From Trebonia kvetii (GTDB lineage: Bacteria; Actinomycetota; Actinomycetes; Streptosporangiales; Streptosporangiaceae), in the NCBI RefSeq assembly GCF_007827045.1, contig NZ_RPFW01000001.1:1464519-1528518 (forward strand): a stretch of DNA of 64,000 nt, written 5' to 3'. How positions within the stretch are numbered: position 1 is the stretch's first letter; each line of letters opens with the position of its first letter. Of the stretch, positions 1 to 12,553 are shown piece after piece. Under the pieces are notes generated by a model, which was given only the letters and a program-made list of their open reading frames with translations, was not told the DNA's origin and searched no databases. Both the position numbers and the translations under genes were made by a program.

Positions 1-1
1 C

Positions 2-496
2 CTGCTTGGCATCTGGGGCGGCATCATTCCGTTCGTCGGGCCTTACTTCCACTATGCCTACACTCCGGACAAGGCATGGACCTACACCACCGGCAGGCTT
101 GAACTCGAGATCCTGCCCGGCGCCGGCGCCCTGCTCGGCGGTCTGCTCCTCATCGCCGCGCGCAGCAGGTATGTCTGCCTGTTCGGCGCGCTGATCGCGA
201 TCGCCAGCGGTGCGTGGTTCGCCCTCGGCAACGTCTTCGCCCCGCTGTGGACGGTGGCGGGCCCAGCGGGCGGCCCCGCCAGCACCGGCACGCTGATGCG
301 CGCGGTTGAGCAGGTGGGCTTCTTCACCGGGCTCGGCATTGCCATCGTGATGGTCGCTGCCGCGGCCGCCGGGCGGCTCAGCGCCGTTCCCAGCCTGCGC
401 GCCGTGGAGACCGTCCCTGTCGCCGAGGTCCCGGCGAGCCGGGAGCCAGTCGACGATTCGGTGGTAGACGAGAGCGAGACGCGGGTCATCAGGTAG
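2..496 (+). CDS. Integral membrane protein, 3' part only
   Basis: The reading frame is open from the first bases of the window and ends at TAG 494-496, so the start lies outside. The visible 164 residues contain about four hydrophobic segments (a Gly/Ile-rich one at the left edge, one around residues 40-55, one around 60-80 and one around 110-130) and end in a charged, probably cytoplasmic tail rich in Glu, Asp and Val. I do not recognise a named family; it resembles small multi-spanning membrane proteins common in actinomycetes. A perfect palindrome follows 17 bp after the stop. Function unknown. Confidence 0.7.
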   Translation: MLGIWGGIIPFVGPYFHYAYTPDKAWTYTTGRLELEILPGAGALLGGLLLIAARSRYVCLFGALIAIASGAWFALGNVFAPLWTVAGPAGGPASTGTLMRAVEQVGFFTGLGIAIVMVAAAAAGRLSAVPSLRAVETVPVAEVPASREPVDDSVVDESETRVIR

Positions 497-513
497 CGAC
501 CAGTCGCTGCCGC

Positions 514-541
514 GCCCCCGCCGCACGCGTGCGGCGGGGGC
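514..541 (+). terminator. Rho-independent-type terminator after the membrane protein
   Basis: A perfect 28-bp palindrome (two 14-bp arms meeting at ACGCGT) is followed by CTTTACCC. It lies between the stop of the membrane protein and the 3' end of the convergent DUF397 gene, so it may serve both. Confidence 0.75.
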
Positions 542-570
542 TTTACCCGTGTCCGGGCTGCCCGCCTGCG

Positions 571-819
571 CTACATCCGGTTCCTGCCGAAGTCGTCGAA
601 CTCGCCCTTGCGCACTCCGCCGATGAAGGCGCGCCACTCCTCCGGGGTAAACCGGAGAACCGGACCCTCGCGATCCCGGCTGTTGCGGACGCCGACGGCG
701 CCGAGCTCCAGTTCGGATACCTCGACACAGTTGCCGTTGGCGTAACTCAATGAGCTCTTGATCCAGGCAGGCCCGGCGCTCACGGTTGCGGACATATTTC
801 CCGCCATCGCAGTTCCCAC
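571..819 (-). CDS. DUF397 domain protein
   Basis: An 82-residue protein made almost entirely of a DUF397 domain: W-x-KSS-L-S-Y-ANGNCVEV, then VGVRNSRD, then LRFTPEEWRAFIGGVRKGEFD. DUF397 proteins are small actinomycete proteins usually encoded next to XRE/DUF5753 regulators and are thought to act as their partners. Here no XRE gene is adjacent; the nearest is 2.1 kb away beside a second, very similar DUF397 gene. The GTG at 819 has AAGGG five bases upstream; ATG codons at 807 and 795 are possible alternatives. The remnant of an anti-sigma-like ATPase gene lies just upstream, so this is a rearranged regulatory cluster. Confidence 0.85.
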   Translation of the reverse strand: MGTAMAGNMSATVSAGPAWIKSSLSYANGNCVEVSELELGAVGVRNSRDREGPVLRFTPEEWRAFIGGVRKGEFDDFGRNRM

Positions 820-861
820 GTCATCCCTTCGCCGACTGTCTTCACGATGCGCTTGCAGCGG

Positions 862-935
862 GGACGGTGAGCCTCCGGGGGCTATGGCTCACCGTCCCCG
901 CCTCCCCCGCGGGCCGCGTCCGTCCTCCGTGCGGC
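862..935 (-). pseudogene. 3' remnant of an anti-sigma-like ATPase gene
   Basis: Read on the minus strand, this segment carries GACGGACG, GCCC, CGGGGG and GCGGGGACGGTGAGCCAT in the same order as the 3' end of the ATPase gene at 8571-9056. It ends in codons for G-D-G-E-P followed by TAG, where the intact gene has TGA. The similarity continues past the stop into a hairpin (GGTGAGCC/GGCTCACC). There is no room for the ATPase domain before the promoter-like element at 1097-1134, so the body of the gene appears deleted. Extent is approximate. Confidence 0.5.
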
Positions 936-1096
936 ATCGGTCGCGGACGTAAGGCAGCGTGTCGCGGGAGCGTCACGGCCCTAGCCCACGGGGAAGCTTG
1001 CAAAGCGGGCACCCGGCCGAGTCCGGCCGATAGTTTGTGCAGCAGCGGCGGCGGGGCCTGGCCTCAGCAGCACGCTGGTTGCATAGAGAATGCTGC

Positions 1097-1134
1097 TGCA
1101 AGTTGCAGCGCAAGACATCGGTCATCTGCCGTAT
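1097..1134 (-). promoter_or_regulatory. Composite regulatory element, copy A
   Basis: TGCAAGTTGCA at 1097-1107 (inside a 15-bp perfect palindrome, 1095-1109) is followed by ATCGGTCATCTGCCGTAT at 1117-1134. The centres of the two parts are 23.5 bp apart, the same as in copies B (9244-9281) and C (9790-9827). This is the most degenerate copy in its second half. On the minus strand it lies upstream of the decayed ATPase remnant, matching the layout at the intact genes. Confidence 0.6.
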
Positions 1135-1273
1135 GTGCAAGAAATCCCGGGCTGTCTTCTTTGTGCCGCGCACCGATGAACCTTTCCGCGCCGCCGGCGC
1201 ATCCTGAGGAAGACCGCTTTCCCCGCTCTGGCGGAGCTGCAGCGGTCGGCATGCCGTGACTCAGGGAGGCGCC

Positions 1274-2416
1274 ATGGCGTTCGCGATGCGCGACGAGTGG
1301 AAGGCGGAGCCGGTCTCGACCACCGGGGCCGTGTACGTCGAGCCGTCCGCGGCGGATCCCATCAAGCCTGGCGAGCGAGTCGCCCACCTGTTCCCGCGCA
1401 GCGTCATGGAGGAGTACATCCTGCAGCGGGTGACCGAACGGGTCTGGTGGGTCTCCCGGCACTTCTACGGTTCGCTGTTCTATGTCGGTACGCGCGGGGT
1501 GCTGCTGCTCGACCCCTTCCTCGGCGGCGCTGAGGCGACAGTAAAGGCCGTCGCCTCGGTGACGGACCTGCCGGTGACGGCGGTGGTGTACTCGCACTTC
1601 CACGCGGACCACATCGGCGGCGCGCGGCGGCTGTTCGAACTGCTCGCGGCGGCGCCGCCGCGAGTGATCGCCTCTGAGCACACCGCCGTCTGGATGGAGC
1701 GCTTCGGCAGCGACCTGCCCCGGCCCGCGCAGGTGCTTGACTGGCCCTCGGGCGCCTGGTCGTTCGAGGACGTGACGCTTCGGCTGCGCGGCTTGCCGCG
1801 GCCAGGTCACGCGCCCGACCATTCGGTGTTCCTCCTTCGAGGAGGAACGGGCGGGCACTCCGCCGACCTGATCAACATCGACCAGCTCCCGTTCGGCGGC
1901 TTCGCCGGCCAGGACCCGCTGGTGCTGTTCAGGCCCAACCTAGAGTTCGCACGGTCGCTCGAGTTCGACTGGTTCTGCGGTGGCCACGGCAACATCGGCG
2001 AGAAATCCGACTTCGACTTCTACCTCGCTTACCTGGACGAGGTCGCCGCGCTCGTCGACGAGTACGTGCCGCGCCCGGAGTCGGTCCCCGACCTGTCACT
2101 GACGGACTACCTGAGTGGCCTTGACTCAGGCGCGAGGTCACGGCTGCTGTCGGAACTCGACAATCACTTCGGGCTCTACCTGTACGGCAGGAAGATCGTG
2201 GCAGGCGAGGAGCGGTCGGGCGGCGGCAACCCGTTCCTTAGCGGCCTGATCGGCGAATGGTCCGCCGAGCGGGCCAGGGCCGTCGACGAGGCGGTGCCGC
2301 GCATCATCGAACGGCTGCGCCCGAAGTACGGGCGCATGTACAACTTCGACGACGCACAGCCCGGCAACGTGCGCCTGCTTGCCATGGGCGTCCAGCCGAG
2401 TCTCATCAACCGCTGA
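1274..2416 (+). CDS. MBL-fold metallo-hydrolase
   Basis: A 380-residue protein of the metallo-beta-lactamase fold. The zinc-binding motif HxHxDH is at residues 108-113 (S-H-F-H-A-D-H-I-G-G), with further candidate metal ligands in E-H-T-A-V and G-H-A-P-D-H and near G-G-H-G-N. The C-terminal third is longer than in the minimal fold and is rich in charged helices. Family members hydrolyse diverse esters, thioesters or lactones; the substrate cannot be told from sequence. The ATG at 1274 has GGGAGG five bases upstream and is preferred over the in-frame GTG at 1256. It is a single gene convergent with a DUF397 gene, with a shared hairpin between them. Confidence 0.85.
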   Translation: MAFAMRDEWKAEPVSTTGAVYVEPSAADPIKPGERVAHLFPRSVMEEYILQRVTERVWWVSRHFYGSLFYVGTRGVLLLDPFLGGAEATVKAVASVTDLPVTAVVYSHFHADHIGGARRLFELLAAAPPRVIASEHTAVWMERFGSDLPRPAQVLDWPSGAWSFEDVTLRLRGLPRPGHAPDHSVFLLRGGTGGHSADLINIDQLPFGGFAGQDPLVLFRPNLEFARSLEFDWFCGGHGNIGEKSDFDFYLAYLDEVAALVDEYVPRPESVPDLSLTDYLSGLDSGARSRLLSELDNHFGLYLYGRKIVAGEERSGGGNPFLSGLIGEWSAERARAVDEAVPRIIERLRPKYGRMYNFDDAQPGNVRLLAMGVQPSLINR

Positions 2417-2423
2417 AACCGAT

Positions 2424-2459
2424 AAGGCGGGTCCCCAGGCTTGCTGGGCGACCCGCCTT
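2424..2459. terminator. Bidirectional terminator between convergent genes
   Basis: AAGGCGGGTC (2424-2433) pairs with GACCCGCCTT (2450-2459), and CCCAG/CTGGG extends the stem inside. It sits between the ends of the MBL-fold gene and the DUF397 gene, and each arm ends in A/T-rich sequence on the outer side. Confidence 0.75.
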
Positions 2460-2472
2460 GTGGTTTGAACTA

Positions 2473-2685
2473 TTATGCGCCGAAACGGTCGAATTCGCCG
2501 TTTCGGACGCCTCCGATGAACGCATGCCACTCGTCCGGCGTGAAGCGGAGAACCGCTCCTGCGGAGTCCCGGCTGTTGCGAACACCCACTTCATCGCCGG
2601 AGAGGTTCGCCACCTCAACACAGTTGCCGTTAGCGAAACTAAGCGAGCTCTTTACCCATTCGGGGCTACTTCCGATCGTAGGCAC
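2473..2685 (-). CDS. DUF397 domain protein
   Basis: A 70-residue DUF397 protein: EWVKSSLSFANGNCVEV, VGVRNSRDS, then VLRFTPDEWHAFIGGVRNGEFDRFG. It is closely related to the DUF397 protein at 571-819. I place the start at GTG 2685 because AGGGGG lies nine bases upstream; an in-frame GTG at 2730 would add 15 residues but lacks a ribosome site. It follows the XRE/DUF5753 gene in the same direction after about 240 bp, the classic regulator-partner arrangement of actinomycetes. Inferred role: partner or antagonist of that regulator. Confidence 0.85.
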   Translation of the reverse strand: MPTIGSSPEWVKSSLSFANGNCVEVANLSGDEVGVRNSRDSAGAVLRFTPDEWHAFIGGVRNGEFDRFGA

Positions 2686-2928
2686 AGCGACGCTACCCCC
2701 TAACAGATTTTTCGTGTTTGCCCTGCACACACGGCTACCGACGGCATGAGCCTTACCGTGGGTAGTCGCTTTGCGCTGAGGTTAGCAGACGGACCCCATA
2801 AACATCATCCGGTCTGATCCAACCCAGGTAACACTACTGTCAAGTAAGCAACAGTTGGCTGCACTGCTCACGCAAATGCGGAGGTCATCGCTAAGACAGG
2901 AAGAGCGGGCCGCTGCGCGGCGGAACCG

Positions 2929-3819
2929 TCAGGAAGCGGTGCGGCGCCGGCCAGTCCAGAGCGATTCGGCCAGTTCCAGGATCATTTGCTTCGAGTCGGC
3001 TGGGCTGAGTGCCACCTCGGTGAGGGCCCGGAATGCCACCCGGTGCAAATGCGTCTCCCGCTCGCCCTCGATGATGAAGCCACTGCGCATCTGCTCGGTG
3101 GCCACCACGTCCTGCAGCACCGCGTCACCGTCGGCCTCGAAGCCGAAGAGCACGAAGGACTCGCCGATCACCGTGTGCGGTCCGTCGAGGGGAAGGACCT
3201 GCAGCGTCAGGTTGGGCCTGTCACACTCCTTGGCAAGCCGCTGCAACTGCTCGTACATGGTGAGGTCGGAGCCGATCCTGCGGAGCAGCACCGACTCGTC
3301 GAGCACCACGGAGAGCTTCAGGCCGATCCTGTCGAGGACCTGCTGGCGGCGCATCCGCACCCGGACGAGCCGGGTCACCTGGGACGGAGGTACCGGCTCG
3401 ATCCTGTCGTAGCTGTCGATGATGTGCCTGGCGTACGCCTCGGTCTGCAGCAGGCCGGCCACCACGTCTACATGCCAGATGGCGGCCGAGGTCGCCTCAT
3501 GCTCGAGTCCGATGAACTGCTGGTAATCCTCGGGCAGGCTGTCGGCATACTCCTCCCACCAGCCCTTCTGGGAGGCATCCTCGGCGAGTGCGAGCAGCAT
3601 CGCCCGGTGCTGGCCGCCTACGCCGTAGTAGTCGAGCAGTCGCTCGACCTCCCTGGGGCGCAGTCCTGTCTTGGCGCGCTCATACCGAGAGATTTTCGAC
3701 GGGCTCCAGCGCAGCGCGTGCGCCACGGACTCGCCGCTGCGCCCCTTCGTCTCGCGCAGTGCCCGCAGTTCGGCGGCAAGCCGACGGCGGCGCACGGTGG
3801 GGCTTCCCTCTTCCACCAT
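2929..3819 (-). CDS. XRE-family regulator with DUF5753
   Basis: A 296-residue cytoplasmic regulator. Residues about 8-60 form an XRE helix-turn-helix (RRRLAAELRALRE...SPSKISRYERAKTGLRPREVERLL). The rest is a DUF5753 domain (LEHEATSAAIWHVDVVAGLLQTEAYAR, then VRMRRQQVLD...LSVVLDESVL and LTLQVLPL). Such proteins are related to WhiJ/AbaA-type developmental regulators of Streptomyces. The start at 3819 is chosen because AGGAGAGGAGG lies about ten bases upstream; the frame is open to 3912. Its neighbours are the DUF397 gene downstream and a long A/T-rich upstream region that also serves a small secreted-peptide gene. The binding site is unknown; TGCAAGTTGCA-type elements nearby are candidates. Confidence 0.88.
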   Translation of the reverse strand: MVEEGSPTVRRRRLAAELRALRETKGRSGESVAHALRWSPSKISRYERAKTGLRPREVERLLDYYGVGGQHRAMLLALAEDASQKGWWEEYADSLPEDYQQFIGLEHEATSAAIWHVDVVAGLLQTEAYARHIIDSYDRIEPVPPSQVTRLVRVRMRRQQVLDRIGLKLSVVLDESVLLRRIGSDLTMYEQLQRLAKECDRPNLTLQVLPLDGPHTVIGESFVLFGFEADGDAVLQDVVATEQMRSGFIIEGERETHLHRVAFRALTEVALSPADSKQMILELAESLWTGRRRTAS

Positions 3820-4306
3820 CGGGCACCGCCTCCTCTCCTGCCTCTGGTACCGCCGGTCCGCGGTAATAGCAGTATGTGGACAGCAAAGTAACGCCGATGA
3901 TGAATATTTCACGGAAAGATTCGCCGAAACAAGAAATCGGGCTAATCCATCCCTTTGCGGCTAGGCCGACCGCGAGCAGCGGGAACATAGTGACGCGAAT
4001 GCACTTAGGTTAAGTCCGTGAGAGCAGATGCGTATGGGACTTCTGATGCAGATTGGTTAACTCGGAATGAACAGCATTCAATGGTTAAAACTGATCAATT
4101 ATGACAGTTGCGGGGCGAAGACTGACCGACGGTTCTGACGTGACGCGCGACGGCCGGAGTTGCCAGAGACAATGATTGAAAGCGAATTCTCGCTACCGAT
4201 GATATTGGTCTCGCAGGAAGTTTTCACCCTCCTCGAAGGATCAATAAAACGGACCGACTCCGAGTGAGGGAACCCGGAGAGGGTCCGTTTCGTGATTCGC
4301 CGCACT
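3820..4306. other. A/T-rich regulatory region upstream of the XRE gene
   Basis: These 487 bp are noticeably poorer in G/C than the coding DNA around them. They hold the upstream region of the XRE gene and the terminator of the small secreted-peptide gene (4247-4290). A small inverted repeat GAATG/CATTC lies near 4055-4075 among several GGTTAA-like words. I see no gene; reading frames here have intergenic codon composition. Confidence 0.5.
4247..4290 (-). terminator. Terminator of the small secreted-peptide gene
   Basis: AAACGGACC (4247-4255) pairs with GGTCCGTTT (4282-4290), and CTCCG (4258-4262) pairs with CGGAG (4275-4279) inside. Read on the minus strand the stem ends in GTCCGTTTTATT, a U-rich tail, 16 bp after the stop of the 53-residue gene. 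Confidence 0.8.
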
Positions 4307-4468
4307 TCACCCGTGATAGGTGAAGGCGTTGGGGGACACACTCGCGGACACGACGGCCGCCGCGGCCGGCGTTGCTGCCGTGAGAGCGAGGGTTGGAGCG
4401 GCCACGAGTGAGCCGACTGTGCCCACCGTGAGGATGGCCGAGGCAAGAATGTTGCGCCGAATTCGCAT
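4307..4468 (-). CDS. 53-residue secreted peptide
   Basis: A short gene on the minus strand: ATG 4466-4468, stop TGA 4307-4309. The peptide begins MRIRRN, has a hydrophobic core (ILASAILTVGTVGSLVAAP) and Ala/Thr-rich stretches typical of a Sec signal peptide, and ends SPNAFTYHG. GGAGG lies five bases before the ATG and a terminator with a U-rich tail follows the stop, so it has a complete expression cassette of its own. After cleavage only about 15 residues would remain outside the cell. Similar tiny secreted peptides with aromatic/His ends are, to my recollection, widespread in actinomycetes and uncharacterised. It stands between the XRE regulator and the LuxR regulator. The function is unknown; a signalling role is only a guess. 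Confidence 0.72.
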   Translation of the reverse strand: MRIRRNILASAILTVGTVGSLVAAPTLALTAATPAAAAVVSASVSPNAFTYHG

Positions 4469-4839
4469 GACTACCTCCATGCGGTTACCGTGGTCAGGTG
4501 CCTACGACCCGGCATCGGCGGCCCGACAGGACTCCTTCGTCCCGTCTTTTTGATTCGCCGGTCTTTGGCTGTTACATAAGCTAGAGTAAATCCAGGAGGC
4601 ATGCATATTCAAATAGTAAAACAGGCGTTACAGATTGCTATGGCAATATGCACGGAAATTGCAGTCCCTGATGCAGTGCATAAACCTCAATCGATTGCAG
4701 TGAGCCTTGCAATGCAAGTTGCACCGCATATTACAATGGATTACACCCGGCAGGCGGCTTTGAATGCCCTAACTAGCCGAATTTCTGTCCTAATTCGAAC
4801 CGCTTGTTCGGTAGATGTGCAGCTAGTACGCTTCGTAAC
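4469..4839. other. A/T-rich leader region of the LuxR gene
   Basis: The 371 bp between the secreted-peptide gene and the LuxR regulator are A/T-rich and unusually dense in TTGCA/TGCAA words from about 4625 to 4725, including a perfect TGCAAGTTGCA at 4713-4723. An open frame at 4601-4852 has A/T-rich third positions and is probably not a gene. Confidence 0.5.
4713..4723. promoter_or_regulatory. TGCAAGTTGCA site upstream of the LuxR gene
   Basis: A perfect inverted repeat identical to the core of composite elements A and C. It lies about 120 bp before the LuxR start. The second half of the composite element (ATCGGTCAGCTGACCGAT) is absent at the expected distance. Neighbouring ATTGCAGT words at about 4660 and 4694 look like extra half-sites. 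Confidence 0.5.
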
Positions 4840-7800
4840 ATGCATCCGGTAACCCGGGTCGGCGTGCTTGCCGGACGCGCGAACGAGCTCGCGCTGCTCG
4901 ACGGGTATTTGAGAGAACTTACCCGTGGCGGCGGCGGCGCAATGCTCATCGAAGGCGAGCCGGGCATCGGCAAGACCGCCCTGGCGCGCGCGGCGCTTGC
5001 CGCGCTGCCGCCGGGCAGCTGCCAGGTCTTCTGGGGTGCGGGCGACGAGCTCGGCCAGGAGCTGCCGCTGCTGCCCTTCCTCGACGCGCTCCAGGTCAGG
5101 CGCCCGTCCGCGAACGCGCGCCGGGCCACGATCACCGGACTGCTGCGGGGCGAGATGGCCACCGATCGCGGCACCGACGTACCGGCGACGATTGCCGAGC
5201 AGCTCATTGCGCTGACCATCGACGAAACCGCCGCGCAGCCGGTGGTGCTCGTCCTTGACGACCTCCAGTGGGCCGATCCGGCCAGCGTGCGGCTGTGGGG
5301 ACGGCTCGCCAGGACCGCGCACCAGGTGCCGCTGCTGCTCCTCGGCCTGACCAGGCCCGCCGCCCACCGGGAGGATCTCCTCGCGCTGCGCCGGGCGGTT
5401 GACGAGGATGCCATACTGCAGCTCGGCGCGCTGCCCGAGCCTGCCACCGCGGAACTCCTCCGTACCCTGGCCGGCGGCCGCCCGGATGCCGCGCTGCTCG
5501 AGCTCGCGGCCGGCGCCGCGGGCAACCCGCTCTACCTCACGGAGCTTCTCGCGGCGCTCAGCCGGTCCGGCGGCATCACGGTCACCGCGGGCGGCATTGC
5601 CGAACTCACGACGGGGTCCGTGCCCGAATCGCTGCCCGCGGCCATCGCGCACCGACTCGGCTTCGTCTCCGGACCCACCAAGGAGGTGCTGCGCGCGGCG
5701 GCCCTGCTCGGCGTCGAATTCGCGGTCCCCGACCTCACCACAGTCCTCGGCAGAAACGTGGCCGACCTGGTGCCCGCGCTCGACGAGGCCAGGGCGACCG
5801 GGGTGCTCACCGACGTGCGCGGCGGCCTCGCCTTCCGCCACCCGCTGATCAGGGAGGCGCTGTACGCGGACCTGCCCGCCGCCGTGCGCGGCGAGTGGCA
5901 CCGCGACGCGGGACACGCCCTCGCGACGGCGGGAGCGCCTCCGGACCGGGTGGCCAGGCAGTTGCTTTGCGCGATCAGCGGCCAGGCCGGTGGCGGAACC
6001 GGACCCGATCCGCTGGCCGGCCCGGCGACGGCCGGCGGCGGCAGCGTGCCGCAAGCCGACCAGGAACTGCCTACCGGGCCGGGACAGCCCGCTGGTCCGG
6101 CGGCGGCCAACGGCGGCACAGCCGCCGTGTTCACCGCTCCGGCCATCAATTTCGAACGACCGCCGATCGCTCTCGTCGCCGCCCAGACGCCGGAGCCCAT
6201 GGACCCCTGGATGCTGGAGTGGCTGGTCATATCCGCGGAATCACTGGTCGGGCAGGCGCCAGGAGTAGCGGCAGAACTGCTCGGCCAGGCGGTAAGCGGA
6301 ATCCCCACCGGATCGTTCAGGCATGGCTGGCTGGCGAGCAGGCTCGCCGATGCCCTCTACCGGATGGGGGACCGGGCCGAGGCGGAACGGGTCGCCGAGC
6401 GGGCGCTCGGGCACGCGGCCGATCCCGACCTGATCGTCGACCTGCACTGGACCCTTGCCCAGTGCAGGATGCTCGCGGGCAGGGCGGAAGAGTCGTTCGG
6501 CACCCTCAAGCAGGCGCTCGACGCGCCAGGCATCACTGCGAAGCATCGCGGCCGCCTGCTCGTGCTCGCCGCCCGTACCTACCTGAACTTCGGCGACATC
6601 GAGGCGGCAGGCGACCAGGCCGACAGGGCGCTCGGCGCGGCGGCGGAGGCCGGCGACACCTGGGCCACCGGGTGGGCACTGCATGTGCGGGCCGTATCCG
6701 CCACCATCCGCGGTGACCTGACCGACGCGCTGCCGCTCTACGACCGGGCGCTCGGCGTCACGGAGACCGATCCCGCGCTCACCGACCTGGGCCTGCTGCT
6801 ACTTGTCAACAAGTCCGTGACACTGCTCAACGTCGACCGGGGCGAGGAGGCGCTTGCCACGGCCGAGCGCGCCAGGCACCTGGCCAACCAGGTTGGTACG
6901 GCAATGCGCCTCGCGCAGGCGCACGGGGTACTCGGCCAGGGGCTATGGGAAACCGGGCGGTGGGACGACGCCGCTGCCGAACTCCGCGCCGTCCCCACGG
7001 ACCTGAAGGAGCCCTCGGCGGCCTGCGGCGAGCTCGGCATCATCGCCGTCATTTTCTTCCACAGGAACGAGCCCGCCTCGGCGCGCCGCTACCTGGCCGA
7101 GGCCGAGGCGCTCGCGGAGCGGATCAAGCAGCGTTCGCTCGGCCCGCTGCTGCTCGCACGGTCGCTCGACCATGAGCAGGCCGGGGCGCCGGACCGGGCA
7201 CTTGCCGTCCTGGTGTCGGCCCTCGACGGGGGAAGCGACGTCGGCGAGATCGAGGATGTGCTCGGGGACGCGGTGCGGCTCGCGCTGAAGACAGGCGACA
7301 AGACGACCGCGCAGGGGCTAACCGGCCAGGTGGCCACTCTGGCCGACGGGTCGGAGACTCCGTCCCGCCAGGCGAACGCGCTGTACTGCCGCGGGATGGT
7401 TGACCAGGACTCGGGCATGCTGCTCGCGGCCGCGCAGCGGTATGCCGACGGCGGGCGCCCGCTGCCCAGGGCCAAGGCACTGGAGGCAGCCGCCGAGTGC
7501 CTGGTACGAGCCGATGAGCGGACCGCCGCGCGGCAGGCGTTCGAGCAGGCCGTCGAGGTCTACGAGTTCCTCGGCGCCGAGGCCGACCTCAACCGCGTGC
7601 AGGCGGAATTCCGTACCCATGGCATCAGGCGCGGGCCGCACAGCAAGCACCGGCGGGCAGTTTGCGGGTGGGACTCGCTCACCGACACGGAGCTGAAGAT
7701 CGCCGCCTTCGTCGAGGAGGGGCTGTCCAACCCGGAGATCGCGGGACGGCTGATGCTGTCGCGGCGGACCGTGGCCACGCACGTGTCGCACATTCTGAAG

Positions 7801-7869
7801 AAGCTTGACGTGACGACAAGGACCGACATCGCGCGGGAGTCGGCGCTGCGCGCCGTCGCGGCTCGCTAA
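4840..7869 (+). CDS. Large AAA-ATPase LuxR-family regulator (LAL type)
   Basis: A 1009-residue regulator. Its N-terminus has a STAND/AAA ATPase with Walker A GEPGIGKT at residues 39-46 and Walker B VVLVLDDLQWADP at about 135-147. A central region of TPR-like helices (for example RADEALYRMGDRAEAERVAERAL-type units) spans roughly 450-930. The last 65 residues are a LuxR helix-turn-helix (DTELKIAAFVEEGLSNPEIA...SRRTVATHVSHILKKL). LAL proteins activate transcription after binding a ligand and ATP, often for secondary metabolism or sugar use. The ATG at 4840 is chosen; a TTG at 4804 is in frame, and neither has a clear ribosome site. An A/T-rich leader with TGCAAGTTGCA precedes it. It is transcribed alone and followed by tandem hairpins. 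Confidence 0.9.
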   Translation: MHPVTRVGVLAGRANELALLDGYLRELTRGGGGAMLIEGEPGIGKTALARAALAALPPGSCQVFWGAGDELGQELPLLPFLDALQVRRPSANARRATITGLLRGEMATDRGTDVPATIAEQLIALTIDETAAQPVVLVLDDLQWADPASVRLWGRLARTAHQVPLLLLGLTRPAAHREDLLALRRAVDEDAILQLGALPEPATAELLRTLAGGRPDAALLELAAGAAGNPLYLTELLAALSRSGGITVTAGGIAELTTGSVPESLPAAIAHRLGFVSGPTKEVLRAAALLGVEFAVPDLTTVLGRNVADLVPALDEARATGVLTDVRGGLAFRHPLIREALYADLPAAVRGEWHRDAGHALATAGAPPDRVARQLLCAISGQAGGGTGPDPLAGPATAGGGSVPQADQELPTGPGQPAGPAAANGGTAAVFTAPAINFERPPIALVAAQTPEPMDPWMLEWLVISAESLVGQAPGVAAELLGQAVSGIPTGSFRHGWLASRLADALYRMGDRAEAERVAERALGHAADPDLIVDLHWTLAQCRMLAGRAEESFGTLKQALDAPGITAKHRGRLLVLAARTYLNFGDIEAAGDQADRALGAAAEAGDTWATGWALHVRAVSATIRGDLTDALPLYDRALGVTETDPALTDLGLLLLVNKSVTLLNVDRGEEALATAERARHLANQVGTAMRLAQAHGVLGQGLWETGRWDDAAAELRAVPTDLKEPSAACGELGIIAVIFFHRNEPASARRYLAEAEALAERIKQRSLGPLLLARSLDHEQAGAPDRALAVLVSALDGGSDVGEIEDVLGDAVRLALKTGDKTTAQGLTGQVATLADGSETPSRQANALYCRGMVDQDSGMLLAAAQRYADGGRPLPRAKALEAAAECLVRADERTAARQAFEQAVEVYEFLGAEADLNRVQAEFRTHGIRRGPHSKHRRAVCGWDSLTDTELKIAAFVEEGLSNPEIAGRLMLSRRTVATHVSHILKKLDVTTRTDIARESALRAVAAR

Positions 7870-7890
7870 GATCTTGCTCCCCCCGCGGGA

Positions 7891-7967
7891 GTCCCCGTCC
7901 TGCCGCCACCCCCGCCGGGACGGGGACGCGGGCGGCGCGCCGGGTGAGGGGCCGGCGCGCCGCCCGC
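7891..7967 (+). terminator. Two tandem terminator hairpins after the LuxR gene
   Basis: GTCCCCGTCC (7891-7900) pairs with GGACGGGGAC (7918-7927); directly after it the 14-base arm at 7928-7941 (GCGGGC...CGCGCC) pairs perfectly with 7954-7967. No U-tract follows, so they may act as G/C-rich hairpin terminators as is common in actinomycetes. Confidence 0.6.
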
Positions 7968-8151
7968 ATTGACGCGTCCGTCCCTGGCCCAAGGGGGCTC
8001 GGACGCGTTGCCGCGGTGGTGGCGGACCCGCGGCGGCTCGTCGCCCGCCACCATCACGCTCATCGGCTCCGGCACAAGCGGACCGGTTCATCGGCTAACC
8101 GAGGGGATGACGTGCCATGTGCGGCTCATGACACGCCACCCCCGCGTCTAG

Positions 8152-8187
8152 CCGCTGGCCGGCCCGGCCAAAGGATCCGGCCAGCGG
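8152..8187. terminator. Hairpin with T-rich flank
   Basis: CCGCTGGCCGG (8152-8162) pairs with CCGGCCAGCGG (8177-8187) and is followed by GGTCTGGTTTT. No recognised gene lies immediately upstream on the plus strand, so what it terminates is unclear; an unrecognised small transcript is possible. Confidence 0.4.
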
Positions 8188-8343
8188 GGTCTGGTTTTCC
8201 CGGGGGCGGCCGCCGCGCGCCATCGCTCGCGGCGGCCGCCCTCGGGAGGATCCCCTACGCCCGGCTGCGGCCGGCCGGGCGTCGGGGCGCCGGGGATGAC
8301 GCGCGTCTGCGACCCGCGCACATCATCCCGGACTTCGGGATGG

Positions 8344-8574
8344 CTAGCGTGTGCGGCTCACGCTGCCATCCCCGGTGGTGTCTGAGGAGGCCTTTTTGAT
8401 TCCGGACCAGAAGGCGAGTCCGCAGCGGACGGGACGGTCGGGCACACCGCGGCAGCGGGCGCCCGCCCAGGCCGCTCCGCTGACGCCGCGGCCATGGAAG
8501 CCGATGCCGCGCATGTCCGCGGACCGGCAGCCTCCGGCGCCGAAAGCGGGGGCGGTGAACCTACGGGGGCTCAT
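8344..8574 (-). CDS. Possible small ORF coupled to the ATPase gene
   Basis: A 76-codon frame whose ATG overlaps the TGA stop of the ATPase gene (ATGA, 8571-8574), a common coupling arrangement in this window. Its third positions are about 83% G/C by my count, which is compatible with coding but also with the G/C-rich background. The composition (Arg, Gly, Cys-rich) resembles no family I know, and the related remnant at 862-935 lacks the overlapping ATG. Treat as doubtful. Confidence 0.25.
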   Translation of the reverse strand: MSPRRFTAPAFGAGGCRSADMRGIGFHGRGVSGAAWAGARCRGVPDRPVRCGLAFWSGIKKASSDTTGDGSVSRTR

Positions 8575-9056
8575 GGCTCACCGTCCCCGCTCGCGGCTAC
8601 CCCCGGGGCACGTCCGTCACCCGCCGGGGCGAAGGGTGCGGACTCGGGAGCGAGCACGAAGTAGACGGCTCGTCCCGCGGGGGTTCTGTAGTGGCCCCAA
8701 TCTGCCGCAAGGGCGGCGGCGAGTAGCAGGCCACGCTCGGCGTTCGCGCTGGAGTCGGCGGCCTCCCAGGTATCCCTGCTCACCGAGGGGTCATGGACCT
8801 CGACACGGAACTGGCCGCCGGACCACCCCATGCCGAGCATGATGTAGTCGTCGGCGCCATTGGTCGCGGCGTTGATGACGAGATCGCTCGTCAGCAGGAT
8901 GGCGACCGCGGGGTTGACCGGAACCGACCAAGCGTCGATCGCCTTCCTGACGTGCCCGCACGCGTGCGCCGCCATCGCCGGCCCCATCGTCAGCCGAACG
9001 CGGCGTTGCCGCAGTTCGGCCGGCAGGACCGGCAGGGCCGGCGCTATCGTGTCCAT
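8571..9056 (-). CDS. RsbW-like ATP-binding protein (anti-sigma type)
   Basis: A 161-residue protein with a HATPase_c_2 fold: N-box SDLVINAATNGAD, then HDPSVS, an E-R-G-LLLAAALAADWG motif and YRTPAGRAVYFVL. Such single-domain histidine-kinase-like ATPases act as anti-sigma factor kinases or in conservon-type signalling in actinomycetes. ATG 9056 has GAGG eight bases upstream; ATG 9074 is in frame. The C-terminus is a short Gly/Ala tail ending G-D-G-E-P. A close paralogue lies directly upstream (9269-9739), and a third copy seems to have decayed at 862-935. Composite element B lies about 200 bp upstream. Confidence 0.85.
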   Translation of the reverse strand: MDTIAPALPVLPAELRQRRVRLTMGPAMAAHACGHVRKAIDAWSVPVNPAVAILLTSDLVINAATNGADDYIMLGMGWSGGQFRVEVHDPSVSRDTWEAADSSANAERGLLLAAALAADWGHYRTPAGRAVYFVLAPESAPFAPAGDGRAPGVAASGDGEP

Positions 9057-9243
9057 CGCGAGGGTCCTCTCCATGACCGTGTTGATCCGCTGGGCTGATC
9101 TGTCGAACAGTGGCTGATCGCAAAGCGTTGCGCACCGGCGGCCGCACCTGCCTGCTCCCGGGGAAGCGGCTCCCGCGTAGGGGGCGGAGCAGGCGTTCCG
9201 ATCTGGTCATCGATAGCGGCGCCGGTTGCGAAACAAATGCTGC

Positions 9244-9281
9244 TGAAAATTGCAGTGCGAGACATCGGTCAGCTGACCGAT
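9244..9281 (-). promoter_or_regulatory. Composite regulatory element, copy B
   Basis: TGAAAATTGCA (9244-9254, a degenerate form) is followed by the perfect 18-bp palindrome ATCGGTCAGCTGACCGAT (9264-9281); the centres are 23.5 bp apart. The palindrome contains the last codons and the TGA stop (9269-9271) of the upstream ATPase gene. On the minus strand it precedes the ATPase gene starting at 9056. Confidence 0.65.
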
Positions 9282-9739
9282 CTTGATGTCAGCCCTGGCT
9301 GAAGCTCCAGAGTGAAGTACACGGCCTTGCCAGCGGAGGTACGGTAAGAACCCCACTCGGCTGACAGCGACGTCACGAGCAGGAGCCCCCGGCCGGTCTC
9401 CGCGTCAGCCGGGGCGATGTCGAGTACCGGGAGGTAACCCGACCCGTCATGGACATCCACCCGCAGCACGGCCGCGTCGCAGGCGACGGCGAGGAGCACG
9501 AACTCGTCCGTCTCCTTGGTGCCGTGTGTGACGGCATTGGTCACCAGCTCGCTGGTGAGCAGAACGGCCACGTCCGCGTCCACAGGGACGCGCCACGCGC
9601 GGATGACGTCCTCGATGACGGCACGGGCCGACGCGGCGGCGGTGAGATCCGCCAGCAGCGGCATGCGGAACGCGTGCCAGGCAACCGGGAGCGGCAGGAC
9701 GGGGGAGCGGTACGGACGGGTCGGCGCCATCTGCGTCAT
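9269..9739 (-). CDS. RsbW-like ATP-binding protein (anti-sigma type)
   Basis: A 156-residue paralogue of the ATPase at 8571-9056: SELVTNAVTHGTKETDE (N-box), VDVHDGSG, ETGRGLLLVTSLSAEWGSYRTSAGKAVYF. The inferred role is binding and possibly phosphorylating an anti-anti-sigma or sigma partner; no partner gene of that kind is visible in the window. The start ATG 9739 has AAGGAAAG three bases upstream. Composite element C lies 50-90 bp upstream, placing it at the promoter. The gene pair looks like a tandem duplication in which each copy carries its own control element. Confidence 0.85.
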   Translation of the reverse strand: MTQMAPTRPYRSPVLPLPVAWHAFRMPLLADLTAAASARAVIEDVIRAWRVPVDADVAVLLTSELVTNAVTHGTKETDEFVLLAVACDAAVLRVDVHDGSGYLPVLDIAPADAETGRGLLLVTSLSAEWGSYRTSAGKAVYFTLELQPGLTSRSVS

Positions 9740-9789
9740 GGGCTTTCCTTAGCAGGCCGGGCATTTGTCTCTTGCATGACAAATGCTCA

Positions 9790-9827
9790 TGCAAGTTGCA
9801 TTGACAGACATCGGTCAGCTGACGGAT
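9790..9827 (-). promoter_or_regulatory. Composite regulatory element, copy C
   Basis: TGCAAGTTGCA (9790-9800) is followed by ATCGGTCAGCTGACGGAT (9810-9827), one base off a perfect palindrome; centre spacing is again 23.5 bp. On the minus strand it lies 51 bp upstream of the ATPase start at 9739. The minus-strand sequence downstream (AGCATTTGTCATGCAA) is also shared with copies A and B. Confidence 0.7.
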
Positions 9828-9909
9828 ATCGAATCAGCGGCCGGGAAGCTCAAGTTCCCGCACGTCACAGCAGGCATAACCCGCCTGGTCAGCCGCCTTG
9901 AGCACGGCC

Positions 9910-11574
9910 TTAAAGCTCGCTCAGCAGCAGGTCGGCGGCGCGGTAGCCGACGAGCATGGCGGGCGCCGCGGTGTTGCCGCTCACCTGGACCGGCAGGACG
10001 GATGCGTCGGCGACGCGCAGCCCGGTGACGCCGCGCACCCGCAGCCGCGCGTCGACCACATCGTCGTCCGCCGGGCCCATCGCCGCAGACCCGACGGCGT
10101 GGTAGATGCCGGTGCCGGTGGCGAGCGCGTAGTCCACGGTCTCCTGCCTGGTGCTGACGGACGGGCCGGGAAACTCCTCGGCGGCGATCAGCGCGGCGGC
10201 CGGCGTTTCGGCGAGAACGGCGCGCGCCACCTCGATGACCGGCGCCATCGCGTCCCTGTCCCGCTCGGTCTCCAGGAAACGGGCGTCGATTATCGGGAGA
10301 TCTTCCGGCGCGCTGCCCGAGATGTGCACGGAACTCGCGGTCTCCGGGCGGATCGGGTAGGCCATGAACAGGATGCCGCCGTGCCTGGCCAGCCTCAGGT
10401 CCTCGCTTCCCATGTCGATGGCCATGGGGACGAACAGGCCCTGCACGTCGGGGCGTGCCAGGGCTTGGTCCGACTTGAACTGGCACACCAGGTCGTAGCC
10501 GCCGGTCGACAGCGGGCCGCCGCCGGTCGCCAGGTACCGCAGCGCCTCCGCCACCTGTCCGGTACCGCGGCTGAGCCTGCGGGCCTGGCCCGCGATGCGC
10601 CCGAGCGTCACCTGCAGGGCGGCGCCGCGCTGCTCGATGACGCGCTCGCCGACGTTCGGCGACTCCGCCCGCACCGCGATGCCGTGCCGACGGAGCAGGT
10701 CAGGACGGCCGATGCCGGAGCGCTCGAGCAGCAGCGGCGTCTCCACGGAGCCCGCGCAGAGGATGACCTCGCGGCGGGCCGTCACGTCGCGGATCGTGCC
10801 CGCGGCGTCGACCGTCGCGACGCCGGCGACGCGGCGGCCGTCGAAGATCAGCGAGGCGGCCCTGGTGCGGGTGACGACGGTGAGCTCGCCAGGCGTGCGG
10901 CCAGCGGGCCTACGGCCCCCGCCAGTGCCGGTGAATGCGGAGCCGGCCAGCGGGGGGCGGGCCAGCGCGGGGCGGACGAACGCGTCGTAGGACGTGGTCC
11001 GGCGGCCGCGGCTGATCGTCGACGGGGTGAAGCCGATCCGCTCGGTGTCGTCGGCGTTGGCATCGGCGACGTACCGCCAGCCGTAGCGCACCGCCGAGGC
11101 GAGGATCGCCGCCGTCACACTGTCGCCGGCCCCGGCGACCGTGACGCCGAGCGGCCCGCCCGCGCCGCGGGTCTCGCTCGCGCCGAGACTGTGGTCCTCC
11201 ATGGCCAGGTAGGCGGGCAGCACCTGCGACCACGACCAGCCGGGATTGCCGAGCGCGGCAAGGCCGTCCCAGTCGGCGGCCGCACCGCGCATCCAGATCA
11301 TCCCGTTGATCGCCGCAGACCCGCCGAGCAGCCGGCCGCGCAGCCACACCTCGTGATTTCCCGCGGGGCCGACCGGGTGCACCGGGTAGCGGTACAGGTA
11401 ACGGTCGCCGCGCAGCGTGTAGTAGAAGCCCTTCGGCACGCGCAGCAAGGGGCTGCGGGCCCGGCCGCCGTACTCGATAAGCAGCACGCTCGGCCGCCGC
11501 TCGCTCATCGCGAGCCGGCCCGCCACCACGCACCCGGCGGCGCCCGCCCCCACGACGACGTAATCGAACTCCAC
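9910..11574 (-). CDS. GMC-family FAD-dependent oxidoreductase
   Basis: A 554-residue member of the glucose-methanol-choline oxidoreductases. The FAD-binding GAGAAGCVVAGRL is near the N-terminus, GMC signature 1 is at LLGGSAAINGMIWMRG, signature 2 at LCAGSVETPLLLERSGIG. The C-terminus carries the catalytic His in GIYHAVGSAAMG and Asn in VSGNTAAPAMLVG. Family members oxidise alcohols (choline, aromatic or sugar alcohols); the substrate is not evident. GTG 11574 with GCGAGGA upstream starts just before the Rossmann motif and is preferred to ATG 11682, which would add 36 non-conserved residues and has no ribosome site. Apparently monocistronic. Confidence 0.88.
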   Translation of the reverse strand: MEFDYVVVGAGAAGCVVAGRLAMSERRPSVLLIEYGGRARSPLLRVPKGFYYTLRGDRYLYRYPVHPVGPAGNHEVWLRGRLLGGSAAINGMIWMRGAAADWDGLAALGNPGWSWSQVLPAYLAMEDHSLGASETRGAGGPLGVTVAGAGDSVTAAILASAVRYGWRYVADANADDTERIGFTPSTISRGRRTTSYDAFVRPALARPPLAGSAFTGTGGGRRPAGRTPGELTVVTRTRAASLIFDGRRVAGVATVDAAGTIRDVTARREVILCAGSVETPLLLERSGIGRPDLLRRHGIAVRAESPNVGERVIEQRGAALQVTLGRIAGQARRLSRGTGQVAEALRYLATGGGPLSTGGYDLVCQFKSDQALARPDVQGLFVPMAIDMGSEDLRLARHGGILFMAYPIRPETASSVHISGSAPEDLPIIDARFLETERDRDAMAPVIEVARAVLAETPAAALIAAEEFPGPSVSTRQETVDYALATGTGIYHAVGSAAMGPADDDVVDARLRVRGVTGLRVADASVLPVQVSGNTAAPAMLVGYRAADLLLSEL

Positions 11575-11791
11575 GCCGCTATCCTCGCCCAGGACGGTGA
11601 CCGCGTGGCGACCGGAGTCAGCCGCAACCGTTCCGTATGGCCTTTCTTTTTTCGCCAGAACGGGTCCGGCTGGCTGCCTCATGCTGATTACCCTGGTCAG
11701 CCGCTGATGACCTGGGGGACGGCGGCTGACTTGAGTCCCTCGACGCCGAACTCGAGGCCGTAGCCGGACTGCTTCGCGCTCAGTCCGGCGG

Positions 11792-12553
11792 TCAGCCGGC
11801 CGGGCTGAACCACAGCCGGATCGCCAGGGCGAGGCCAGAAAGCGCGACCAGCCAGCGCAGCACGCGCGGCGGAAGCCGCCTGGCGACCCAGGGTCCGGCC
11901 AGGCTGCCGGCGAACAGGCCGAGCGCCAGCGGCGCGACGGCGCCCCAGTCGGCTCTGGTGAGCAGCACGAACAGCATGGCCGAGGTGATCGTCGCCGCGC
12001 CGACCACCATGTTCTTGAGGGCGTTCGCGCTAGCCAGGCGCGGGTCGGTGGTCAGCAGCAGCAGTGCGAGCAGCAGCACGCCAGAGCCCGCGCCGAAGTA
12101 GCCGTTGTAGCAGGACAGGGCCGCGAGGCCGCACGGGAGCAGCAGCCTGCCCCGGCCTGCGTCCGCCCGCCAGGAGGGCCGTGCCGCGAGCCATGGCTGG
12201 CACAGCAGCGCCAGCGAGCCCGCCGCCACCAGGAAGGGCACCACCCGGCCGAACACGCCGGGCGGCGTCACGAGCAGCAGCACCGAGCCGGCCGCGCCGC
12301 CGAACGCGGCGACGATCCCCCAGCGCAGCAGCCACGGCCCGCGGCCGCGCAGTTCTGGCTGCGACGCTGCCGCCGCGCCCGGCCAGCAGGCGACGAGCGC
12401 GACCAGGTTCGCCACATTGGCCTGCAGTGGCGCCACCCCGGCAAGCAGCAGCGCCGGGTACGAGACCAGGGAGGTGATGCCGCCCGCCGTCCCGACAAGC
12501 CCGGCGAGCGCGCCGGCGGCGAGCAGGAACAGCTCACGGGTGACCGGACTCAC
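11792..12553 (-). CDS. TauE/SafE-family membrane transporter
   Basis: A 253-residue polytopic membrane protein with about eight hydrophobic segments and the family's Gly-rich N-terminal motif (LAGLVGTAGGITSLVSYPALLLAG) and its repeat in the second half (CYNGYFGAGSGVLLLALLLL). TauE/SafE proteins export sulfite, sulfoacetate or other organic anions. The GTG start overlaps the stop of the upstream FAD-monooxygenase gene (GTGA, 12550-12553), so the two are co-translated. The exporter may move a product of that enzyme, but this is inference. Confidence 0.85.
   Translation of the reverse strand: MSPVTRELFLLAAGALAGLVGTAGGITSLVSYPALLLAGVAPLQANVANLVALVACWPGAAAASQPELRGRGPWLLRWGIVAAFGGAAGSVLLLVTPPGVFGRVVPFLVAAGSLALLCQPWLAARPSWRADAGRGRLLLPCGLAALSCYNGYFGAGSGVLLLALLLLTTDPRLASANALKNMVVGAATITSAMLFVLLTRADWGAVAPLALGLFAGSLAGPWVARRLPPRVLRWLVALSGLALAIRLWFSPAG

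What the first reader, a model, noticed from the sequence alone, without database searches (positions are those of the whole stretch)
1097..9827. A 38-bp composite control element repeated three times at anti-sigma-like ATPase units
Copies at 1097-1134, 9244-9281 and 9790-9827 each join TGCAANTTGCA to ATCGGTCAGCTGACCGAT with exactly 23.5 bp between centres. Each lies upstream (minus strand) of an RsbW-like ATPase gene or its remnant. The conserved distance suggests two DNA-binding proteins, or one dimer of dimers, contacting one face of the helix. The nearby XRE/DUF5753 regulator is a natural candidate binder, but this is inference.
Basis: partly seen in the sequence, partly recalled or inferred. 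Interest (0 to 1): 0.75.

Follow-up and report, generated by a model that had tools for sequence, protein, structure and literature searches.

The report
Shared promoter switch of peptide-signalling cluster
Three copies of a 64-base DNA element stand before genes for an anti-sigma-like ATPase or its small DUF397 partner in one bacterial genome and recur before the same kinds of genes in related species; they are likely promoters with a built-in site for the neighbouring regulator, in a gene cluster that also holds a small, predicted secreted peptide which may be its signal.

Summary
The repeated unit is 58-64 bp, not 38. It recurs with near-fixed spacing in 24 of 297 genomes of the family, mostly before HATPase (AbaA/RsbW-like) genes, also flavohemoprotein-like, DUF397 and NMT1-like genes. 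It has two separable parts. P1 (ATCGGTCAGCTGACCGAT, GATGT invariant) sits at fixed distance from a -10-like hexamer and survives where P2 has decayed. P2 belongs to a three-part site, TTGCA-N13-TGCAA-N-TTGCA; a degenerate pattern for it has five exact matches in the 9.25-Mb genome, all in this 9-kb cluster: the three copies, the XRE/DUF5753 promoter and the promoter of a LuxR-type (LAL) gene. Of three XRE promoters outside the fitting set, one has it perfectly, one in part, one not. Newly seen: between XRE and LAL lies a gene for a ~53-aa predicted secreted peptide with constant leader and hypervariable tail, pheromone-like, in 16 of 16 held loci with both genes. Binding and signalling are untested.

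The parts
1073..1136 (-). Composite element, copy 1 (P1 at 1117-1134; three-part site 1079-1107; -10-like hexamer 1090-1095), before DUF397 gene
9220..9283 (-). Composite element, copy 2 (P1 9264-9281; three-part site 9226-9254; hexamer 9237-9242), before second ATPase-like gene
9766..9829 (-). Composite element, copy 3 (P1 9810-9827; three-part site 9772-9800; hexamer 9783-9788), before first ATPase gene
3901..3929 (-). Three-part site without P1, upstream of the XRE gene (likely self-control)
   Evidence: 0 mismatches, pattern fitted to include it
4695..4723 (+). Three-part site without P1, between peptide gene and LAL gene
2929..3819 (-). XRE regulator, HTH_31 + DUF5753 (WhiJ type); predicted binder of the three-part site
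   Evidence: Pfam; orthologues
2473..2730 (-). DUF397 gene next to XRE (BldB type)
   Evidence: Pfam
571..819 (-). DUF397 gene downstream of copy 1
   Evidence: Pfam
857..924 (-). Remnant of an ATPase gene 3' end with long hairpin (matches 8545-8618)
4307..4468 (-). 53-aa predicted secreted peptide precursor, constant leader, hypervariable tail
4840..7869 (+). LAL regulator (AAA_16, TPR, LuxR-type GerE HTH); candidate activator at P1 (inferred)
   Evidence: Pfam
8571..9074 (-). Second ATPase-like gene (no Pfam hit; placed by similarity to the other ATPases)
9269..9739 (-). HATPase (HATPase_c_2, RsbW/AbaA-like) gene after copy 3
   Evidence: Pfam
4804..4832 (+). Inferred LAL core promoter TTGTTC-N17-TACGCT
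   Evidence: read by eye; same layout in 10 of the 18 LAL loci examined

Best explanation
The element is likely a promoter with two superimposed control sites: a three-part site (TTGCA-N13-TGCAA-N-TTGCA) predicted to bind the cluster's own XRE/DUF5753 regulator, and a palindrome (P1, ATCGGTCAGCTGACCGAT running into GATGTC) that would bind an activator, perhaps the LuxR-type LAL protein encoded next door. Shown from sequence: the unit, its near-fixed spacing, its recurrence before ATPase, flavohemoprotein-like, DUF397 and NMT1-like genes, the same three-part site before the XRE and LAL genes, and co-occurrence of element and XRE orthologue. Inferred: two invariant letters (A43, T47) fit a -10 hexamer; P1 would then be centred near -42, where an activator can replace a poor -35, while the three-part site covers spacer to start point, where a bound regulator would block polymerase. 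At the XRE gene the same site would give self-repression. Inferred with least support: the secreted peptide encoded between XRE and LAL is the signal; LAL (through its TPR part) or XRE (with DUF397) would sense it, switching the target genes together.
For: Pattern for the three-part site: five exact matches in 9.25 Mb, all in this cluster, at all three element copies and before XRE and LAL. Spacing 13 stands out in 18 XRE upstream regions: 11 with <=1 mismatch against 0-4 at spacings 5-23; with undegenerate half-sites 10 of 18 at <=2 mismatches, next best spacing 6 of 18. Held-out XRE promoter of G052, with no LAL or peptide gene on its contig, matches with 0 mismatches (0 of 5000 shuffles). 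XRE orthologues in 20 of 297 genomes, all among the 24 with the element. A43/T47 in 56 of 58 composite sites and 5 of 6 sites with decayed P2. Fixed P1-P2 distance in 38 of 39 strong sites.
Against: No binding data. Pattern letters were fitted after viewing XRE promoters. XRE of G003, also held out, has no such site in 200 bp upstream; G172's second XRE has only the two-part form. G007, G055, G156 and G197 have the element but no XRE at the cut-off; in G055 the 1157 bases on the expected side of the peptide gene show no XRE match. The LAL gene co-occurs as well (10 of 41 genomes, all with the element) and has the site at its own promoter. In LAL promoters spacing 8 (10 of 18) nearly equals spacing 13 (12 of 18). 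The XRE -10 seen by eye in relatives is not evident in the window. The hexamer's first letter is mostly C, a weak -10. Co-occurrence within one family partly reflects descent.
Confidence: 0.47

Rival explanations
1. The LAL (LuxR-type) protein, not XRE, binds the three-part site and so controls itself, XRE and the ATPase genes; P1 belongs to another factor.
For: The site lies at the LAL promoter in 9 of 10 loci allowing one mismatch; LAL is in 10 of 41 genomes, all with the element; G055 has LAL, peptide, ATPase and element with no XRE found nearby; seven loci around LAL paralogue matches have no P2-like site.
Against: XRE promoters carry the site, also in G052 where no LAL is on the contig; at LAL the site is about 130 bp upstream of the inferred start, at XRE it is close to the gene.
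Confidence: 0.28
2. P1 with its GATGTC and the hexamer is the recognition sequence of an alternative sigma factor, possibly the one the ATPase restrains, and only P2 is an operator.
For: GATGT is invariant and at fixed distance from the hexamer; P1 plus hexamer occurs with decayed P2; RsbW-like ATPases act on sigma factors (established for RsbW/SpoIIAB, recalled).
Against: P1 is an 18-bp palindrome, typical of a protein dimer site; no sigma gene was found in the cluster genes examined; no known sigma consensus was matched (recalled, not searched).
Confidence: 0.15
3. The repeats are remains of local duplication or a mobile element without regulatory role.
For: Copies 2 and 3 sit in tandem ATPase units and copy 1 keeps an ATPase-end remnant, so local duplication did occur; one P1-like site stands before an IS-type transposase gene.
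Against: Conserved across many species with 38 of 39 equal spacings; the same element before unrelated genes; conserved core in diverged flanks.
Confidence: 0.03

Closest known systems
WhiJ-BldB-AbaA clusters of Streptomyces (HTH/DUF5753 + DUF397 + HATPase)
   Same: Same three protein types side by side; AbaA-type genes strongly controlled in such networks; WhiJ9 binds near its own gene and a divergent target (PMC10294661: abstract, passages and one section read).
   Different: WhiJ9 site is three direct repeats CGXXCTCAAC, not this inverted three-part site; here a LAL regulator, a peptide gene and a P1 palindrome are added.
RRNPP-type peptide quorum sensing of Firmicutes
   Same: Small exported precursor with variable tail next to its presumed regulator gene; one relevant paper (PMC10075063, passages) says actinobacterial signals are typically small molecules.
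   Different: XRE here has DUF5753, not an RRNPP TPR receptor by Pfam; TPR is in the LAL protein; import and maturation unknown.
LuxR-type class II activator box (recalled)
   Same: Inverted repeat of about 18-20 bp overlapping a poor -35, centred near -42.
   Different: Start site is inferred only and the binder is not identified.

Membership tests
WhiJ-BldB-AbaA type cluster | XRE HTH protein with DUF5753 | tested here: met
   Pfam HTH_31 and DUF5753
WhiJ-BldB-AbaA type cluster | Adjacent DUF397 gene | tested here: met
   two DUF397 genes; relatives
WhiJ-BldB-AbaA type cluster | Nearby HATPase_c (AbaA-like) gene | tested here: met
   9269-9739 Pfam HATPase_c_2; 8571-9074 only by similarity
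WhiJ-BldB-AbaA type cluster | WhiJ9-type direct repeats CGXXCTCAAC as binding site | tested here: not met
   the conserved element is an inverted three-part site plus palindrome; compared by eye. This is the site of one paralogue, not a defining feature of all
Peptide pheromone system | Small precursor with export leader and diverging C-terminal tail | tested here: met
   first 29 residues 85% identical, residues -8 to -4 29% (56 homologues); leader judged by eye
Peptide pheromone system | Released peptide alters gene expression through a receptor | not testable with these tools
   needs experiment
RRNPP family | HTH regulator with C-terminal TPR receptor domain | tested here: not met
   XRE has DUF5753 and no TPR hit at E<=0.001; no PDB relative by profile
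LuxR-type class II activator box (for P1) | Inverted repeat centred near -42 from the start site | tested here: inconclusive
   follows only if columns 42-47 are the -10

The most novel reading that the evidence does not exclude
An actinomycete peptide quorum-sensing system in which a WhiJ-type XRE/DUF397 pair and a LuxR-type LAL protein read a self-encoded, strain-variable secreted peptide and jointly switch a regulon (anti-sigma-like ATPases, flavohemoglobins, NMT1-like binding proteins) through one composite promoter-operator. It would supply the missing signal and the missing operator for a WhiJ-type cluster.
Probability: 0.4. Interest if true: 0.87.

Novelty: new variant of a known kind. 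Interest (0 to 1): 0.7.

Why it matters
WhiJ/BldB/AbaA clusters are abundant in filamentous actinomycetes, yet their operators, targets and signals are mostly unknown. [quoted passage not shown] since then one paralogue's site was found (WhiJ9, PMC10294661). Here one cluster shows a defined candidate operator shared by regulator, second regulator and ATPase genes, and carries a candidate peptide signal, so both questions become testable with a short oligonucleotide, a synthetic peptide of about 8 residues and one reporter.

Tried and rejected
A 38-bp unit only: rejected, conservation is longer and splits into two parts. Chance or dispersed repeat: rejected. Known RNA element: no Rfam family at gathering threshold in window 1-12000. 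WhiJ9-type direct repeats as the same site: the published consensus differs. P1 matches inside coding sequence (L091, L092, L093) judged chance. A first genome pattern with the wrong spacing found nothing and is no evidence. Full ATPase remnant after copy 1: only the 3' end is there; protein-level matches in the interval are weak. Relatives on plasmids: only distant ATPase homologues, <60% identity. In one search the G003 row was taken at a wrong offset, inside the gene; it was redone (no site found). Literature searches for a peptide-LAL or peptide-XRE system in actinomycetes (DUF5753 alone) listed none that I recognised as such from titles and abstract starts; preprints and most subscription papers are not held. 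Structure of the XRE protein: not obtained.
Full report
CHECK. The three copies are where the finding puts them, with equal spacing. The strings given are approximations: copy 1 departs at 4 of 18 positions of the palindrome, copy 2 at one position of TGCAANTTGCA, copy 3 at one of the palindrome. Aligned without gaps they share 58 bp. A sequence-only profile of those three (R1) finds them at E about 6-8e-16 in the whole genome and nothing else above 26.3 bits; 150 of 252 first-look candidates were scored. In 41 genomes (own plus 40 relatives) it gives 29 matches at E<=1e-8 in ten other genomes and none that strong in the remaining 30. A profile of 38 sites (R2) finds the element in 24 of 297 genomes and 11 of 68 genera of the family; these genomes are a sample of a larger family, and only 17 first-look candidates per genome were scored with strict filters, so weak sites can be missed. 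A class-wide search could not be made.

ANATOMY. In gene direction the consensus is AnATCCGTCAGCTGACCGATGTCTnGCAnTGCAAnTTGCAGCAnnATTTGTCnTGCAACCGGCA. The distance from GATGT to TGCAANTTGCA is 7 letters in 38 of 39 strong sites and 6 in one. A third half-site TGCAA follows after exactly 13 letters in 20 of 39 and after 12 in one; the other 18 do not match it exactly. Invariant A43 and T47 lie between the half-sites and fit the two most constrained letters of a -10 hexamer (recalled). They are present in 56 of 58 composite sites and in 5 of 6 P1 sites whose P2 has 4-5 mismatches. In the class with 6 or more P2 mismatches only 1 of 14 has them; by inspection that class is largely palindromes of composite sites read on the other strand, composite sites shifted by an insertion or deletion, and coding matches. 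So P1 plus hexamer can exist without a good P2.

TARGETS. For 61 sites (one pair nearly identical, L070/L072) a home-made codon-usage gene caller gave the first same-strand gene within 700 bp: HATPase 34, DUF397 4, other 18, none 5; the other strand was not considered. The 18 others are 9 flavohemoprotein-like genes (one scanned: globin, FAD and NAD domains; the rest judged by shared sequence), 3 NMT1-like binding proteins (two scanned), 2 HTH_17 proteins (one scanned) and 4 single cases. In the window, copy 1 serves DUF397; the interval holds a 75-bp piece of an ATPase 3' end with a long hairpin, and a similar 43-bp piece stands in the corresponding interval of another species (L075).

WHO BINDS. 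TGCAANTTGCA occurs exactly four times in 9.25 Mb, three of them within 8.7 kb here; the control (pattern read backwards) occurs seven times, so it is the clustering, not the number, that is unusual. One of the three is not at an ATPase gene but before the LAL gene (window 4713). It is before LAL in 9 of 10 loci allowing one mismatch; the tenth has only about 165 bp held upstream. XRE upstream regions carry TTKCA-N13-TGMAA: 11 of 18 at <=1 mismatch for spacing 13, 0-4 for the other spacings from 5 to 23, mononucleotide shuffles mean 0.11 and maximum 2. G004 (near-duplicate of G002) and G003 were not in that set. The spacing came from the ATPase sites, but the degenerate letters were chosen after looking at XRE promoters; with plain TTGCA and TGCAA, spacing 13 still leads (10 of 18 at <=2 mismatches, next 6 of 18), though at <=1 mismatch it does not (2 of 18; spacing 18 has 4). 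Searching the genome with the three-part pattern gave five exact matches: copies 1-3, the XRE upstream region (3901-3929) and the LAL upstream region (4695-4723), plus two one-mismatch matches elsewhere; the reversed control gave four at <=1 mismatch, and the pattern had been fitted to include the five. Outside the fitting set: the G052 XRE gene (57% identical, no LAL or peptide gene found on its 13.6-kb contig) has the full pattern with no mismatch, starting 149 bp upstream (0 of 5000 shuffles); a second XRE gene of G172 has the two-part form with one mismatch; the G003 XRE gene has none in 200 bp. XRE orthologues (E<=1e-95, cut-off set from the gap seen) are in 20 of 297 genomes, all among the 24 with the element, none found among 273 without. 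G007, G055, G156 and G197 have the element but no XRE at that cut-off; the G055 contig shows peptide, LAL, ATPase and element with no XRE match in the 1157 bases on the expected side. In LAL promoters spacing 8 (10 of 18) rivals spacing 13 (12 of 18) at <=3 mismatches; some LAL starts were set roughly there. LAL at E<=1e-60 is in 10 of 41 genomes, all element-bearing; the larger LAL search did not complete. I put XRE ahead of LAL as binder of the three-part site, not beyond doubt.

CLUSTER. Read across species the order is DUF397 - XRE - peptide - [three-part site] - LAL - ATPase - [composite element]; single loci lack one or another part or are cut by contig ends. XRE and LAL stand together in 16 held loci, and in all 16 a small gene lies between them (15 by profile; the sixteenth, L175, weakly, E 5e-5). 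Two more loci (L040, L178) have peptide and LAL without XRE on the held contig. L180 and L184 have a LAL-type gene and no peptide was found; L002 is too short to tell. In the window the gene is 4307-4468 on the minus strand, 53 aa, MRIRRNILASAILTVGTVGSLVAAPTLALTAATPAAAAVVSASVSPNAFTYHG, with GGAGG before the start as in 16 of 16 starts examined. A protein search found 56 homologous clusters, none with a Pfam domain; most are unnamed or called hypothetical, one is labelled a transporter substrate-binding protein by its source. Their first 29 residues are 85% identical on average, residues -8 to -4 only 29%, and 41 of 56 end in HG; the search favours close leaders, so the contrast is partly one of selection. 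Among 16 cluster peptides from other genera the tails differ too, and one repeats its tail three times. A constant export leader with a diverging tail is the usual look of a pheromone precursor (recalled). Of 18 LAL loci, 10 show a conserved block with TTGNNN-N17-TANNNT, whose start in the window would fall on the ATG (read by eye). The peptide gene has TTGNNN-N18-TANNNT within 260 bp in 6 of 16 loci and none at spacings 16, 17 or 19. In the window the three-part site lies about 130 bp from both inferred starts.

MECHANISM. Shown: elements, spacings, positions, gene neighbourhood. Inferred: XRE represses itself and the target promoters from the three-part site, which would cover spacer to start in the targets; P1, at about -42, holds an activator, with LAL a candidate because of its LuxR-type HTH and its place in the cluster; DUF397 modulates XRE, as proposed for SCO4542 and WhiJ (PMC6262351 and PMC4255298, passages); the peptide is the signal. 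The last step is the least supported. In the WhiJ9 case the regulator activates its target (PMC10294661), so the sign at the targets is open.

KNOWN OR NEW. The proteins belong to the WhiJ-BldB-AbaA kind. The operator, its sharing between XRE, LAL and target promoters, and the peptide gene were not found in the papers listed or read (searches; passages; one section; open-licence library only). I file it as a new variant of a known kind.

Noticed in passing
window 4307-4468 (-): Unannotated 53-aa predicted secreted peptide gene with constant leader and hypervariable tail, conserved between XRE and LAL genes in relatives.
   Followed up: yes
L167:2570, L168:8983, L068:14293, L169:2477, L171:2795, L176:4332, L179:3160, L180:275, L181:7696: The composite element stands before flavohemoprotein-like (globin-FAD-NAD) genes in nine relative loci, hinting at a link to nitric oxide handling.
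   Followed up: partly
L050:7536-7580 (own genome, C1) and L053:6487: P1-like sites with decayed P2 but with the hexamer; in L050 it lies before an IS3-like transposase gene (type judged by eye).
   Followed up: partly
L049:6395-7297, L041:7155-7901, L064:1750-2505: A 250-300-aa protein family without Pfam hit (two members scanned) lies downstream of element or P1-like sites, one of them elsewhere in the window's own genome.
   Followed up: partly
window 857-924 and 8545-8618: The same long hairpin (GGTGAGCC...GGCTCACC) ends an ATPase gene and stands before the DUF397 gene after copy 1.
   Followed up: partly
own genome C61:124809-124819 (L094): The only exact TGCAANTTGCA outside the cluster, about 150 bp before a called 144-aa protein that looks membrane-bound.
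   Followed up: no
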